Below are positions 174 to 62,804 of a DNA stretch of 64,000 bases, piece after piece. The position numbers and the translations under genes are program-made. The DNA is taken from contig NZ_CP047897.1 of NCBI RefSeq assembly GCF_009913235.1, positions 1,507,501-1,571,500 on the forward strand, in the 5' to 3' direction. Below the pieces are notes generated by a model. The model worked only from the letters and a program-made list of their open reading frames with translations. It ran no database searches and was not told the origin of the DNA. Positions within the stretch are counted from its first letter, which is position 1. Each line of letters starts with the position of its first letter. This DNA comes from Nibribacter ruber (lineage in GTDB: Bacteria; Bacteroidota; Bacteroidia; Cytophagales; Hymenobacteraceae).

Positions 174-211
174 CGTTTTTGGCCTGTTTTCTGGAAAAGA
201 GACCAAAAACG
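174..211. repeat. 38-bp palindromic repeat, copy 1
   Basis: Outer arms CGTTTTTGGC-type and CCAAAAACG surround an inner TTTTC/GAAAA stem. Flanking bases extend the pairing to ACCG/CGGT (172-213). The right end merges directly into the TACT microsatellite. The family is described in the findings. Confidence 0.9.
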
Positions 212-212
212 G

Positions 213-387
213 TACTTACTTACTTACTTACTTACTTACTTACTTACTTACTTACTTACTTACTTACTTACTTACTTACTTACTTACTTACTTACTTACT
301 TACTTACTTACTTACTTACTTACTTACTTACTTACTTACTTACTTACTTACTTACTTACTTACTTACTTACTTACTTACTTACTTAC
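213..387. repeat. TACT tetranucleotide microsatellite, about 44 units
   Basis: This is an uninterrupted array of the 4-bp unit TACT, 175 bp long, with no visible variant unit. It starts at the last flanking base of palindromic copy 1. The plus strand is open in every frame and would encode a Tyr-Leu-Leu-Thr periodic peptide, but a TAA recurs in every minus-strand frame. No real gene appears to contain it. Perfect arrays of this length usually vary in copy number through slippage, and the exact count may be an assembly estimate. Confidence 0.95.
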
Positions 388-420
388 GCAGAAGGATTAC
401 AATGGAGCTCATGGGACTTC

Positions 421-472
421 TCCCCTCTTTGTCATCCTTAAAGGATATCGGCGGCGAGCTAGACAGGCTTAA
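421..472 (+). repeat. GTCATCCTGAAAGGAT-type interspersed repeat, copy A
   Basis: The segment contains TCCCCTCTTTGTCATCC, AAAGGAT and GGCGGCGAGCT. It matches segments at 10781-10839 (same strand) and 17626-17680 (opposite strand). All three lie in noncoding DNA close to a 38-bp palindrome. Confidence 0.6.
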
Positions 473-742
473 GCATTAGAGCAAACAGCTTCTGTGTGCT
501 CATTATGAATCGTTATTTACATTAACATTCCTTTTCTCAGCTTTTACCACTATAGGCTACTTGCGAAATGCAATAGGGATTTGTCCAGAAAGTGAACGAG
601 GAAAGCAAAGAGGCAAAGAGAAGTTCTGCTTAAGCTATGAACAATCGAATGAAGTAGAAAAGCATATACAAACCACCTAGAAAGCAAAAAGGCGTTTAGC
701 AATTACTTACCTCGCGCCCCTTCAATTCAATATCCAATTAGT
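473..742. other. Noncoding stretch, nothing recognised
   Basis: With the repeats on either side this belongs to a gene-free first kilobase. I see no plausible coding frame, tRNA or hairpin here. The sequence is AT-rich and lacks a convincing start codon followed by normal codon use. Confidence 0.5.
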
Positions 743-780
743 CGTTTTTAGCCTCTTTTCCAGAAAACGGGCTAAAAACG
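743..780. repeat. 38-bp palindromic repeat, copy 2
   Basis: The arms carry a compensated change: TAGC on the left and GCTA on the right, instead of TGGC/GCCA. Flanks AGT/ACT pair as well, extending the palindrome to 740-783. It lies in the gene-free first kilobase. Confidence 0.9.
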
Positions 781-932
781 ACTGCTAAGGCCAATCCCTT
801 TTCATGGTCAGCTTTATAAGCCGATTCTTCCAGAGTGATAAATTGAGGACGAGCCATCACACTAAATCAAGACTTGAAGTAATAAAGGTTTATGTTCTTC
901 CTCTATATCTAATGTAGGAAGGTGAACCAACT

Positions 933-984
933 CTATATAAAGAGAGCGGCCACCTTTAAGAAGGTGGCCGCTCTCTTTATATAG
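933..984. terminator. Terminator downstream of purA, 24-bp perfect stem
   Basis: Left arm 933-956 and right arm 961-984 pair perfectly around a 4-nt loop. The GC-rich core GCGGCCACC is flanked by an A/T tract on each side, so the hairpin can act in both directions. It ends 14 bp past the purA stop codon. Confidence 0.85.
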
Positions 985-998
985 TATGTGTAATGCGT

Positions 999-60333: not shown

Positions 60334-60353
60334 ATCCCTCCTCAATCCATTTG

Positions 60354-60376
60354 CACATCTTCACATCTCCAAATTT
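60354..60376. repeat. Right half of 23-bp perfect inverted repeat
   Basis: Exact complement of 60137-60159. Confidence 0.85.
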
Positions 60377-60427
60377 TCACATCAACAATTAGCACATCAG
60401 CACCTTAATCCATTAGCACATTAACCC

Positions 60428-61741
60428 ATGCGTCTCCAGTCCAAACTTGCCTTGTTTAGTGCTGCTTCTAAGGTGGTCATTCTGCTGGTTTTGATTGCGG
60501 CGCTTCCTACGCTGGTGAACAAAGTGGCCTTGCACAACGCAGACGTGAGGCTGCAGCAGAAAGAGGAGATTGTCTATCAATTAATAGGAGACCGGGGCAT
60601 TGAAACCTACATCCCGGAGGGCACCACCAGCTACGGGAGTTACAACCTGCTCAAAGAGGAGTTCGTCTCTTTGGAGGAGGTCAAAAGCGGCAAGGTCAAC
60701 AACGGCATCAGCACGGCCCTGCGCAAAGTAGAAGGCGAAGTGGTAGAATACCGCCTCCTCTCCAGCACTTTTGACTTAGGCCAGAAGCGCTACCTGCTAG
60801 AGATTGGCCGCAGCACCGAGACCATTGGCGAGAACAGCCAGACGCTGCAAAGCTATGCGCTCATCTTCTTGGTAGCCGTGGTCTTGATTACAGTCTTCGT
60901 GGATTTGGCCTATAGCAAAGTGCTCCTGAAACCGCTTACTTTGATTGTGCGCCGCCTGCAACGCGTGGAACATCCTACCACCTTCAAACCGCACGGCCTC
61001 AACACCTCTACAGATGACTTCCTGTACCTCAACAACACCATCAATGACATGATGGGCCAGATACAAGAGGCGTTCCAGAAGGAGAAGGAGTTTATTGGCA
61101 ATGTGTCACATGAGTTGCTCACACCCATCTCCATCATGCAGAACCGCTTGGAGAACCTACTGGCAGACCCAGAAACGCCAGAGGCCATGCTAGAGAAACT
61201 GGTAGACAATCTGCGCACCTTGCACCGCCTGAAAAGCATCATCCAGGCCCTGCTCTTGATTTCCAGAATTGAGAATGAACAGTATCTGAAAGATGAAAGC
61301 GTAAGCCTGGAGTCTTTGGTGCGCGAAGTCTGCGATGAAATCACGGAGCGCGCCGAAGTAAGGGAAGTCAACCTGGAAGTGCACGTACCCAAAGACTTCA
61401 TACTGCCCCAAGCCAACCAGAGCCTGCTGTTCACCATGCTGTTCAACGTGGTCAACAATGCCATCAAGTACAATAAACCGGGCGGCACCATCACCATCAG
61501 GGGCGAAGAGAAACCGGAGGGCTACACTTTGTGCGTGGCAGATACGGGCGTGGGTATTTCGGAGGAGGCCTTGCCCTTCATCTTCAGCAGGTTCAAACGC
61601 TTTCATGCTCCAGACGGCGAGAGCCACGGCCTGGGCCTGCCCATTGTCCAGACCATTGCCGGCTTCCATGACATTACCTTACATGTGCAGTCCAAACTAG
61701 GCGAGGGCACCTCGTTTTGCTTCCAATTCAAAGGCGCTTAA
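60428..61741 (+). CDS. Sensor histidine kinase, partner of OmpR-type regulator
   Basis: The 437-residue inner-membrane kinase has a membrane segment near residues 15-33, a periplasmic sensor of about 110 residues, a second segment near 145-170 and a HAMP-like linker. The H box is FIGNVSHELLTPI (His228). The N box is FNVVNNAIKYNKPGG, G1 is ADTGVGISEE and G2 is GESHGLGLPIVQTI. The periplasmic domain shows no recognised ligand motif. It follows the response regulator on the same strand. Confidence 0.94.
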   Translation: MRLQSKLALFSAASKVVILLVLIAALPTLVNKVALHNADVRLQQKEEIVYQLIGDRGIETYIPEGTTSYGSYNLLKEEFVSLEEVKSGKVNNGISTALRKVEGEVVEYRLLSSTFDLGQKRYLLEIGRSTETIGENSQTLQSYALIFLVAVVLITVFVDLAYSKVLLKPLTLIVRRLQRVEHPTTFKPHGLNTSTDDFLYLNNTINDMMGQIQEAFQKEKEFIGNVSHELLTPISIMQNRLENLLADPETPEAMLEKLVDNLRTLHRLKSIIQALLLISRIENEQYLKDESVSLESLVREVCDEITERAEVREVNLEVHVPKDFILPQANQSLLFTMLFNVVNNAIKYNKPGGTITIRGEEKPEGYTLCVADTGVGISEEALPFIFSRFKRFHAPDGESHGLGLPIVQTIAGFHDITLHVQSKLGEGTSFCFQFKGA

Positions 61742-61743
61742 TC

Positions 61744-61781
61744 CGTTTTTGGCCTCTTTTCCAGAAAACAGGCCAAAAACG
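61744..61781. repeat. 38-bp palindromic repeat, copy 21
   Basis: A perfect-arm copy, CGTTTTTGGCC with GGCCAAAAACG. It begins 3 bp after the kinase stop codon. Confidence 0.9.
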
Positions 61782-61854
61782 GCCCTGTATCACTTTGCCC
61801 GTGTGGCTGGTAAATCCGTACCTTCACAACAGTATCACCTCAACAAGAAGTAGC

Positions 61855-62715
61855 ATGAAGATAGGATTTATAGGATTAGGGATTATGGGTAGCCGTATGG
61901 CCGCCAACTTGCAGAAAGCCGGCCATGAGCTGGTAGTGTACAACCGCACCGCCTCCAAGGCAGATGAGTTAGTAGCCAACGGCGCGCAGCTGGCTTCCTC
62001 CCCAGAAGAAGTGGCACAACAATGCCGTCTGGTCTTTACTATGCTCTCTACGCCAGATGCGGTAGAAGAAGTAGCCACCGGCCCACAAGGTTTTCTGAAG
62101 GTTTTACCCGGCAACTCTCTCTGGGTGGACTGCAGCACCGTGAACCCCTCCTTTACCGCTCGCATGGCCCAAATAGCATTGAAAATGGGACACCGTTTTG
62201 TAGACGCACCCGTATCTGGCTCCCTGATGCCCGCGCAGAATGGCCAGCTGATCTTTTTGGTTGGTGGCGAGGCAAAGGACGTGGAAGAGATCAGGCCGCT
62301 GCTGGACGTGATGGGCAAAGCCGTGACGCACGTGGGCGGCCACGGCCAGGGCGCCAGCATGAAGATGACCGTGAACATGCTCATGGGCCACGTAATGGCC
62401 GCCTTTTCCGAAGCCTTGACCTTGGGAAGTTCGCTGGGAATCTCTGAGGAGGTGCTTTGCCAAACCTTGCTTTCTGGCCCGGCCGCAGCCCCCTTCCTGA
62501 AACTGAAGGAAAACAAGCTCCTCACGCGTGATTTCTCTCCGGAGTTTCCGTTGGAATGGATGCACAAGGACCTGCATCTGGCCAGCGTGACGGCCTATGA
62601 GCAAGGCGTGGCTTTACCCGGCCTGCAAACCGTCAAAGAACTCTACGCCCAAGCCAAACAAAACGGCCTAGCTGACCAGGATTTTTCCTCTATTTACAGT
62701 TTCCTAAAAGGCTAA
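61855..62715 (+). CDS. NAD(P)-dependent beta-hydroxyacid dehydrogenase (3-hydroxyisobutyrate dehydrogenase family)
   Basis: The 286-residue enzyme starts at MKIGFIGLGIMGSRMA, the Rossmann motif; an upstream ATG at 61717 reads through palindromic copy 21 and is rejected. DAPVSGSLMPAQNGQL is the substrate-binding signature. The catalytic lysine is in GASMKMTVNML. Glyoxylate/succinic semialdehyde reductases share this layout, so the substrate is open. It is a single gene converging on the protease gene. Confidence 0.92.
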   Translation: MKIGFIGLGIMGSRMAANLQKAGHELVVYNRTASKADELVANGAQLASSPEEVAQQCRLVFTMLSTPDAVEEVATGPQGFLKVLPGNSLWVDCSTVNPSFTARMAQIALKMGHRFVDAPVSGSLMPAQNGQLIFLVGGEAKDVEEIRPLLDVMGKAVTHVGGHGQGASMKMTVNMLMGHVMAAFSEALTLGSSLGISEEVLCQTLLSGPAAAPFLKLKENKLLTRDFSPEFPLEWMHKDLHLASVTAYEQGVALPGLQTVKELYAQAKQNGLADQDFSSIYSFLKG

Positions 62716-62766
62716 GTCTGTACTGTACCTGCCAGCGAACAGACATAATTCCAAATACCATAAACC

Positions 62767-62804
62767 CGTTTTTGGCATCTTTTCTGGAAAAGAGGCCAAA
62801 AACG
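62767..62804. repeat. 38-bp palindromic repeat, copy 22
   Basis: Flanks AAACC and GGTTT also pair, extending the palindrome to 62762-62809. It lies between two convergent genes. Confidence 0.9.

What the first reader, a model, noticed from the sequence alone, without database searches (positions are those of the whole stretch)
174..62804. A 38-bp palindromic repeat family present 22 times in 64 kb
I found 22 copies by eye, all 38 bp except one of 37. Arms are CGTTTTTGGC and GCCAAAAACG, with 3 nt, an inner TTTTC/GAAAA stem separated by 2 nt, and 3 nt. Twenty lie between genes, usually one per boundary: convergent, divergent or tandem. This density, about one per 2.9 kb, is far above chance. 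Fixed length with variable interior argues for a dispersing or structurally selected element. No transposase is visible. The sequence family and its mechanism seem undescribed to me.
Basis: seen in the sequence. Interest (0 to 1): 0.88.

Follow-up and report, generated by a model that had tools for sequence, protein, structure and literature searches.

The report
Thousand-copy intergenic palindrome of Rufibacter
A short mirror-image DNA sequence sits between genes about a thousand times in the chromosome of this Rufibacter bacterium, at the same places in related species but spelled differently in each, which suggests a genome-wide marking system whose reader is still unknown.

Summary
The window has 22 copies; its Rufibacter chromosome has 1062 (up to 3 mismatches; reversed-pattern control 0). 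All 16 Rufibacter genomes searched have the family; of 134 other genomes of the family, 3 have one match each.

(1) Copies sit at orthologous places across the genus, at similar distances from the flanking genes, but lineages spell them in their own "dialect"; two species have 1784 and 1218 copies. (2) Between the two closest species there is almost no gain or loss (72 of 75 alignable places occupied), and six positions of the site never differ in 61 pairs while flanks differ by about 19%. (3) Occupancy is close to one per gene boundary, with fewer doubles than random placement gives.

Half-sites do not occur alone above control, and wobble pairs show no clear transcript-strand bias. Rufibacter encodes REP-associated transposases, but by eye these lie beside other repeats.

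Best reading, partly inferred: an ancestral element, no longer moving, kept as a DNA-level dyad site for an unidentified protein. Concerted repair of a functionless repeat and a DNA-uptake signal remain possible; arm covariation in two species speaks against the simplest form of my reading.

The parts
174..211 (.). 38-bp palindrome copy
   Evidence: 29 of 30 specified positions
743..780 (.). 38-bp palindrome copy
   Evidence: 28 of 30
4094..4131 (.). 38-bp palindrome copy, convergent boundary
   Evidence: 27 of 30; sites at the same boundary in G013 and G005, none in G009
8339..8376 (.). 38-bp palindrome copy, tandem boundary; left half nearly identical in 6 species
   Evidence: 27 of 30; boundary 5
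10726..10763 (.). 38-bp palindrome copy with arms extended 5 bp into the flanks
   Evidence: 29 of 30
10987..11024 (.). 38-bp palindrome copy, second copy in the same convergent gap
   Evidence: 26 of 30
14701..14738 (.). 38-bp palindrome copy, divergent boundary
   Evidence: 28 of 30; sites at this boundary in 5 other species
15828..15865 (.). 38-bp palindrome copy, tandem boundary
   Evidence: 27 of 30
17572..17609 (.). 38-bp palindrome copy with arms extended 9 bp into the flanks, convergent boundary
   Evidence: 28 of 30
20942..20979 (.). copy inside the coding sequence of an 1181-aa protein; segment of the same length in all 16 Rufibacter species, shorter in the other genera aligned
   Evidence: 29 of 30
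24011..24048 (.). copy inside the coding sequence of a histidine-kinase-like protein
   Evidence: 25 of 30
42197..42233 (.). 37-bp, degenerate copy, divergent boundary
   Evidence: 22 of 30; a fully palindromic copy stands at the same boundary in G007
45240..45277 (.). 38-bp palindrome copy, centred 23 bp after a stop codon (22 and 23 bp in G007 and G013)
   Evidence: 28 of 30; boundary 36
48782..48819 (.). 38-bp palindrome copy
   Evidence: 26 of 30; boundary 38
50041..50078 (.). 38-bp palindrome copy
   Evidence: 25 of 30
50453..50490 (.). 38-bp palindrome copy, convergent boundary
   Evidence: 30 of 30
53196..53233 (.). 38-bp palindrome copy, divergent boundary
   Evidence: 27 of 30; offsets 159-178 bp in 6 species
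54353..54390 (.). 38-bp palindrome copy
   Evidence: 26 of 30
56383..56420 (.). 38-bp palindrome copy directly after a terminator-like stem; offsets 73-79 bp in 6 species
   Evidence: 25 of 30
60296..60333 (.). 38-bp palindrome copy
   Evidence: 27 of 30
61744..61781 (.). 38-bp palindrome copy; offsets 21-24 bp after the stop codon in 5 species, none found in G009
   Evidence: 30 of 30; boundary 48
62767..62804 (.). 38-bp palindrome copy with arms extended 5 bp, convergent boundary
   Evidence: 30 of 30

Best explanation
A genus-specific set of roughly a thousand or more DNA-level dyad recognition sites, about 40 bp long, marking boundaries between transcription units. Shown here: genus restriction, orthologous fixed places, lineage-specific spelling at those places, position-specific constraint after the sites were in place, near one-per-boundary use, and absence of free half-sites. 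Inferred: the sites arose by spread of an element in the Rufibacter ancestor and no longer move; a multimeric sequence-specific DNA-binding protein reads the four T/A tracts, which are spaced about one helical turn apart, and acts at unit boundaries, either as a bidirectional transcription block or in nucleoid architecture. Also inferred: its specificity drifts by lineage and the sites follow, and at least one species (G009) has lost the constraint, so its sites decay.
For: Constraint in place: in 61 of 72 occupied G000-G007 pairs (those within 10 bp of the flank-predicted place), positions 4, 6, 24, 33, 34 and 35 differ in 0 of 61 and positions 5, 15, 16, 23 and 27 in 1-2 of 61, while positions 13, 19, 20, 26 and 29 differ in 20-28 of 61 and 60-bp flanks differ by 19%. 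Decayed sites were not hidden by the search threshold: only 3 of 75 alignable places lacked a copy above it, two of them with a weaker one. Not clearly transcript level: in copies between tandem genes read in the sense direction, G-U 142 and A-C 123 (141 copies, 5 species). Full dyad is the unit: the exact half-site occurs 126 times inside dyads and 3 times alone, reversed-string control 2. Regular use of boundaries: 122 occupied gaps and 12 with two sites, against at most 113 occupied and at least 17 doubles in 5000 random placements under each of three schemes; variance/mean of counts per 10 kb 0.41. Orthologous places: G000 versus G007 16 shared, 0 discordant, 18 shared absences, offset within 10 bp in 13 of 15 (1.8 expected); G013 10 of 15 (2.1 expected); G006 5 of 10 (0.8); G005 8 of 11 (1.5). 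Locus-specific letters persist in 6 of 15 species pairs at permutation p 0.05 or less, among them G000-G005 (13.6 differences against 15.7 for non-orthologs, 10 pairs) and G013-G005 (14.3 against 15.8, 12 pairs).
Against: No protein is identified. In G013 and G005 the two arms covary (for example 54 paired, 32 expected, 73 G013 copies). Between G000 and G007, changes on both sides of a dyad pair are commoner than independence gives (73, 49.6 expected; 22 of them from one Watson-Crick pair to another). 21 of 157 G000 copies have locus-specific arm extensions of 5 bp or more (0.6 expected). Plain dyad binding predicts none of these. Mean divergence over the whole 38 bp (16.3%) is only a little below that of the flanks. 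A concerted change at more than a thousand sites is hard for selection on each site. Locus-specific similarity was absent in several dialect pairs (G000-G013 p 0.47, G000-G006 p 0.52, G007-G013 p 0.75) and not significant in a second G013-G005 sample (9 pairs, p 0.16), in which gap occupancy itself was also only weakly shared (14 both, 4 and 5 in one only, 5 neither).
Confidence: 0.45

Rival explanations
1. A once-mobile short palindrome without function in the host, now fixed, whose copies are kept alike by short-tract conversion and by hairpin-mediated template switching; the dialects are the outcome of homogenisation in each lineage.
For: The G005 and G013 copies examined are fairly homogeneous (57 distinct of 99, 52 distinct of 73). 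Arms covary in those species, both-sided changes exceed independence between G000 and G007 (73, 49.6 expected), and arms grow into locus-specific flanks in G000 (21 of 157, 0.6 expected), G013 (5 of 30, 1.2), G006 (3 of 22, 0.3) and G005 (2 of 29, 0.4), though not G007 (0 of 25), as template switching would do. Whole sets changed spelling: at boundaries shared with G000, 34 of 38 G013 halves carry CA or CG where G000 has 0 of 36; G005 has AG at another pair in 24 of 34 halves, G000 in 0 of 36.
Against: Conversion alone does not make some positions invariant and neighbours free. With the 12 of 72 pairs whose flanks align best, variable positions differ about as much as flanks (0.156 against 0.124), so no excess turnover is needed there. 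A copy of G013 spelling near a transposase gene that seems shared with G013 stands unconverted in G000.
Confidence: 0.22
2. A REP family moved by its own REP-associated tyrosine transposase (RAYT).
For: Short extragenic palindromes in about a thousand copies; three proteins of this genome pass the curated REP_Tyr_transpos cut-off, with motifs like those listed for subclass 2.6 of Bacteroidetes in PMC6006769 (passages; my comparison by eye). One of the three is flanked by copies at 58 and 139 bp; 13 of 26 RAYT-like genes in the genus have a copy within 300 bp on at least one side, without a control.
Against: By eye, nearly all of the flanks of 25 RAYT genes hold other inverted repeats; G007 has 677 copies and no RAYT near the cut-off (best 37 bits, cut-off 80); other genera have RAYTs and no copies; no insertion seen between sister species; no GTAG foot.
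Confidence: 0.12
3. A DNA-uptake signal kept by biased transformation, like the USS and DUS with their dialects.
For: Copy number, even spacing, lineage dialects at orthologous places, T tracts one helical turn apart, decay in G009. Dialects are described for DUS (PMC3630211, passages) and two subclade types for USS (PMC1626085, passages).
Against: Half-sites are not found alone above control, whereas uptake signals act singly (recalled); 4 of 140 copies fall inside my gene calls, whereas intragenic DUS are common (PMC3630211, passage). Competence in Rufibacter was not examined.
Confidence: 0.12
4. An RNA hairpin acting as terminator or 3' end stabiliser.
For: Strong predicted RNA hairpins (z -2.8 to -9.0 in the five copies folded), enrichment near stop codons (median 74 bp after the stop in tandem gaps), some copies continuous with terminator-like stems.
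Against: The polarity is the reverse of an intrinsic terminator (T before the stem, A after it, on both strands); 23 copies sit at divergent boundaries without a gene end; only a slight G-U over A-C surplus (142 to 123); no excess pairing in the G000 core.
Confidence: 0.07

Closest known systems
REP elements / REPtrons, in particular those of RAYT subclass 2.6 in Bacteroidetes (PMC6006769, passages and section 25)
   Same: Short extragenic palindromes in high copy; RAYTs of similar type are in the genome; subclass 2.6 genes are said there to lie beside atypical structures without GT[AG]G, with copies elsewhere in the genome
   Different: RAYT flanks in Rufibacter hold other repeats by eye; places are shared across species; G007 lacks a RAYT near the cut-off; mostly one copy per gap rather than pairs (12 of 122 occupied gaps have two)
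GTAG and CGTC palindromic repeat super-families (PMC3733652, passages)
   Same: Small palindromes near gene ends; CGTC repeats lack a dedicated transposase and occur in Bacteroidetes too
   Different: No unpaired GTAG or CGTC foot, stem about twice the 8-9 bp given there for CGTC repeats, dialects at orthologous places
DNA uptake sequences of Neisseriaceae (PMC3630211, passages) and Pasteurellaceae (PMC1626085, passages)
   Same: About a thousand or more genome-wide copies, lineage dialects
   Different: A full 40-bp dyad, half-sites absent outside dyads, nearly all copies intergenic
Binding sites of chromosome-organising proteins (matS, Noc sites, KOPS; recalled, not looked up)
   Same: Dispersed recognition sites
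   Different: Far more sites than matS or Noc sites (recalled), boundary placement, drift of the motif between species

Membership tests
REP / RAYT system | High-copy extragenic palindrome, 20-40 bp | tested here: met
   1062 copies; 20 of 22 in the window outside genes
REP / RAYT system | GTAG (or GT[AG]G) foot at one end | tested here: not met
   Ends are [CT]CG..CG[GA]; no conserved flank beyond. Subclass 2.6 is described without this foot (PMC6006769)
REP / RAYT system | Cognate RAYT gene flanked by the repeat | tested here: not met
   1 of 26 RAYT-like genes has copies within 150 bp on both sides; 13 of 26 within 300 bp on one side, no control run; other inverted repeats beside nearly all of 25 by eye
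REP / RAYT system | RAYT present where copies are | tested here: not met
   G007: best match 37 bits, cut-off 80, with 677 copies; the other 15 Rufibacter genomes have a match
CGTC palindromic repeats | CGTC foot, 8-9 bp stem, 4-5 nt loop, CCA tail | tested here: not met
   Consensus against the description in PMC3733652 (passages)
DNA uptake signal | Lineage dialects in about a thousand or more copies | tested here: met
DNA uptake signal | Short directional core occurs singly, also in genes | tested here: not met
   Half-site 126 in dyads, 3 alone, control 2; 4 of 140 copies inside gene calls
DNA uptake signal | Promotes uptake of DNA | not testable with these tools
   Needs a transformation assay
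Intrinsic terminator | G+C stem followed by T run, at 3' gene ends | tested here: not met
   T tract precedes and A tract follows the stem on both strands; 23 copies at divergent boundaries
Dyad site of a DNA-binding protein | Position-specific constraint in place, independent half-sites | tested here: inconclusive
   Constraint met; halves independent in G000 but covarying in G013 and G005, and both-sided changes above independence
Dyad site of a DNA-binding protein | A cognate protein | not tested
   No candidate was sought beyond transposases

The most novel reading that the evidence does not exclude
A genome-wide boundary-marking system in one bacterial genus: about one 40-bp dyad per occupied transcription-unit border, a thousand or more per chromosome, read by an unknown protein, whose recognition code switches in place across the whole set between species, including a copy inside a protein-coding gene.
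Probability: 0.3. Interest if true: 0.92.

Novelty: new variant of a known kind. Interest (0 to 1): 0.74.

Why it matters
Dispersed palindromic repeats are usually seen as drifting remnants of mobile elements. Here the places are shared across a genus while the spelling changes over whole sets of copies, a combination I know (from recall) only from uptake sequences, which have another anatomy. The genus offers species with different dialects and at least one in which the sites decay. That makes two open questions testable by comparison: how a thousand sites or repeats can change in concert, and whether boundary-marking repeats have a reader.

Tried and rejected
Uptake-type half-sites: looked for, not found alone above control. 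Inversion of the inner part of the site between orthologs: inverting improved 12-14 of 61 pairs and worsened 28-37, no better than random pairs. Excess turnover of variable positions as a sign of conversion: seemed present in 61 pairs, not in the 12 pairs with best flanks, so not claimed. Wholesale replacement of elements between dialects: contradicted in some species pairs by locus-specific similarity, undecided in others; I did not repeat without the unusually conserved boundary 5. RAYT-linked REP: rejected as above. Known RNA family: only a tRNA reached threshold in the window. Plasmid records: no match to the 38-mer. Viral contigs: one stretch with an exact match, not followed. The centre of the site avoids self-complementary pairs (G000 27 paired of 157, 60 expected; G005 4 of 99, 37 expected); this may be avoidance of perfect palindromes and was not taken further. 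Literature: 9 searches; two searches returned no papers; two papers in the listing that hold the words Rufibacter, repeat and palindrom once or a few times were not opened. Only passages of PMC3733652, PMC6006769 (plus its short section 25), PMC1626085 and PMC3630211 were read.

Limits. Gene calls are from my own simple script, which misses genes and misplaces starts. One search lists only about 100 of the 1062 places; motif counts use 157 copies scoring 23 or more of 30 in 404 kb and boundary counts the 140 of these in the window and one 300-kb stretch. Arm statistics for G013 and G005 use 73 of 1784 and 99 of 1218 copies, taken from the zero-mismatch rows listed; at least one listed G005 row was left out by oversight when copying, and the listed G013 rows with one mismatch were not used. 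One search set aside 70 of 145 G000 and 68 of 150 G007 copies whose flanks did not align, and counts a place as occupied if a copy lies within 150 bp of it; one search set aside 11 of 72 pairs. The general pattern also has one match to its reversed control (G136). Low counts there partly reflect spelling (G005: 60, 1218), so decay is documented only for G009, in 80 kb. The priA identities printed come from an ungapped comparison and are not used. The tree rests on one protein and has weak nodes (several supports 0.31-0.73).
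Full report
What was checked. The window lies in a 4.35-Mb single-contig genome. Exact matches of a general form of the motif in the collection of 84,980 species genomes gave 51 stretches, all titled Rufibacter (records of the window's own genome may be left out there). The 15 genomes that share its genus in the held set carry the motif too, so the organism is taken to be a Rufibacter (Hymenobacteraceae, Cytophagales). The genome has 1062 matches with up to three mismatches, and none to the reversed pattern.

Distribution. With the window's own pattern, all 15 other genomes of the genus have matches (1 to 677); of 43 genomes outside the genus one has a single match. 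With a more general pattern, 16 of 16 genomes of the genus match and 3 of 134 others in the family have one match each, one more having one match to the reversed control. In about 355 kb from 10 genomes of five other genera, 27 palindromes were found; most have A before and T after the stem as terminators do, and none resembles the motif. Low counts in some Rufibacter genomes partly reflect other spellings: with patterns allowing for that, G013 has 1784 and G005 has 1218 copies, controls 0.

Anatomy. In 157 copies from 404 kb, the T tracts at 3-7 and 14-17 and their mirror images at 22-25 and 32-36 are strongly kept, with G9, T12, A27 and C30; positions 10, 13, 19, 20, 26 and 29 vary most. Flanks carry no motif beyond one base on each side. 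Partners across the dyad pair no more often than independent columns give (8-31: 92 seen, 91 expected; 10-29: 77 and 76; 13-26: 47 and 60), and the centre is CA or TG in 103 of 157, so rarely self-complementary. G013 and G005 differ: partners covary (G013 positions 6-31 of the 36-mer 54 paired, 32 expected; G005 12-25 58 and 43), while the centre again avoids pairing. In G000 21 of 157 copies have the palindrome continued for 5-15 bp into locus-specific flanks (0.6 expected); the same is seen in smaller samples of G013, G006 and G005, not in G007. Of 20 of these G000 copies examined, 10 had an alignable place in G007, and one of them (5407 in the 300-kb stretch) shows the same extension in full. 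This looks more like a mutational process such as template switching than an ancestral part.

Places. Using gene anchors, boundaries of the window were compared in five other species and ten of them in up to 16 (many are not adjacent or not held in some species). Both / G000 only / other only / neither: G007 16/0/0/18, G013 16/0/3/14, G006 11/2/2/15, G005 12/2/3/14, and in G009, whose sites are degenerate, 5/7/3/15 (Fisher p 0.21). Offsets from the neighbouring gene are kept within 10 bp more often than uniform placement gives (13 of 15, 10 of 15, 5 of 10, 8 of 11; expected 1.8, 2.1, 0.8, 1.5). A separate 200-kb comparison of G013 with G005 gives 9 of 14 within 12 bp, 3.1 expected, but shared occupancy of gaps is weaker there (14 both, 4 and 5 in one only, 5 neither). 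Example: after one stop codon the site is centred 73, 74, 74, 79, 78 and 75 bp downstream in six species.

Dialects in place. At boundaries shared with G000, two positions read CA or CG in 34 of 38 G013 halves and in none of 36 G000 halves; G005 has AG at another pair in 24 of 34 halves and G000 in none. In the nine co-located G013-G005 pairs these marks stand in 16 of 18 G013 and 13 of 18 G005 halves and in none of the other species' halves. One copy is inside the coding sequence of an 1181-aa protein without a family match. All 16 Rufibacter species have there a 13-residue segment of constant length whose DNA scores 16-22 of 22 on the general pattern, and the G013 copy has G013 marks. In the 14 genomes of other genera that I aligned (of 16 matched) the segment is 2 to 11 residues shorter, one of them with extra residues just before it, and the DNA scores at most 11. 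The linker varies in length, so an in-frame insertion of about 42 bp in the Rufibacter ancestor is likely but not clean.

Stability and constraint. Of 145 G000 copies in the compared regions, 75 had both flanks alignable in G007: 72 places are occupied, two hold a weaker copy, one is disrupted; in the other direction 82 of 82 alignable G007 copies are occupied (68 of 150 not alignable). In 61 well-placed pairs six positions never differ while flanks differ by 19% and free positions by up to 46%; mean divergence over the 38 bp is 16.3%. This is constraint acting after the copies were in place. With the 12 best-flanked pairs the free positions differ about as much as the flanks.

Use of boundaries. 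In 286 gaps called by my script there are 77 copies in 195 tandem, 34 in 46 convergent and 23 in 45 divergent gaps; 1 of 63 tandem gaps under 60 bp holds one. 122 gaps are occupied and 12 hold two, against at most 113 and at least 17 in random placement. Spacing along 300 kb is more even than random (variance/mean 0.38-0.53). Copies lie nearer to gene ends than to gene starts (tandem medians 74 and 129 bp).

Mechanism. The constraint pattern, the absence of free half-sites, the lack of a clear transcript-strand bias and the regular use of boundaries favour recognition of double-stranded DNA by a protein. The role at boundaries (transcription block or chromosome architecture) is inference. The chief difficulty is the change of spelling of whole sets. 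Locus-specific letters are kept in 6 of 15 species pairs, which favours point mutation in place; the homogeneity and arm covariation in G005 and G013 and the surplus of both-sided changes between G000 and G007 favour some exchange or template switching. Both may act.

Transposases. The genome encodes three proteins over the curated cut-off of REP-associated tyrosine transposases, with motifs like those listed for subclass 2.6 in PMC6006769. By eye, nearly all flanks of 25 such genes in the genus show other inverted repeats; half of 26 also have a copy of the present family within 300 bp on one side, which was not compared with other genes. The sister species lacks a RAYT near the cut-off. The family is therefore not filed as their REP.

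A tree of the 1181-aa protein with four outgroup genomes places G002, G003, G004, G009, G012, G014 and G015, which have 4 to 51 matches, in one derived part of the genus together with G010 (229); several nodes are weak, and only G009 was examined for decay.

Noticed in passing
L150:4522-5408 (G000) and L210 (G013): A REP-associated transposase gene whose printed 140-bp upstream flank is identical in the two species has, in G000, a copy in G013 spelling 298 bp downstream; L210 holds a copy differing at one of 42 positions, elsewhere in that locus. This suggests horizontal transfer of a foreign-dialect copy that has not been converted.
   Followed up: partly
L036, L041, L040, L209, L227, L228, L037, L039, L214 and others: RAYT genes of Rufibacter lie beside several other inverted-repeat types (for example GGAAGTTTATAAACTTCC with CCCACAAGTTACGC, GGCGCGGAAGTTACTTCCGTGCC, and CTGGCGCGAG types), candidates for their real REPs.
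   Followed up: no
window 213-387: A long TACT tetranucleotide tract starts directly after the first copy.
   Followed up: no
window 25034-41848: A run of about 16 minus-strand open frames without any copy above threshold; the seven gaps of 40 bp or more compared there lack sites in the species compared.
   Followed up: partly
L279:1275-1310: Single exact match of the general pattern in the viral contig collection (IMGVR_UViG_2839759663_000002, 39 kb).
   Followed up: no
window 56351-56420: A terminator-like stem ends directly at the T tract of a copy, so the copy may supply its T run.
   Followed up: no
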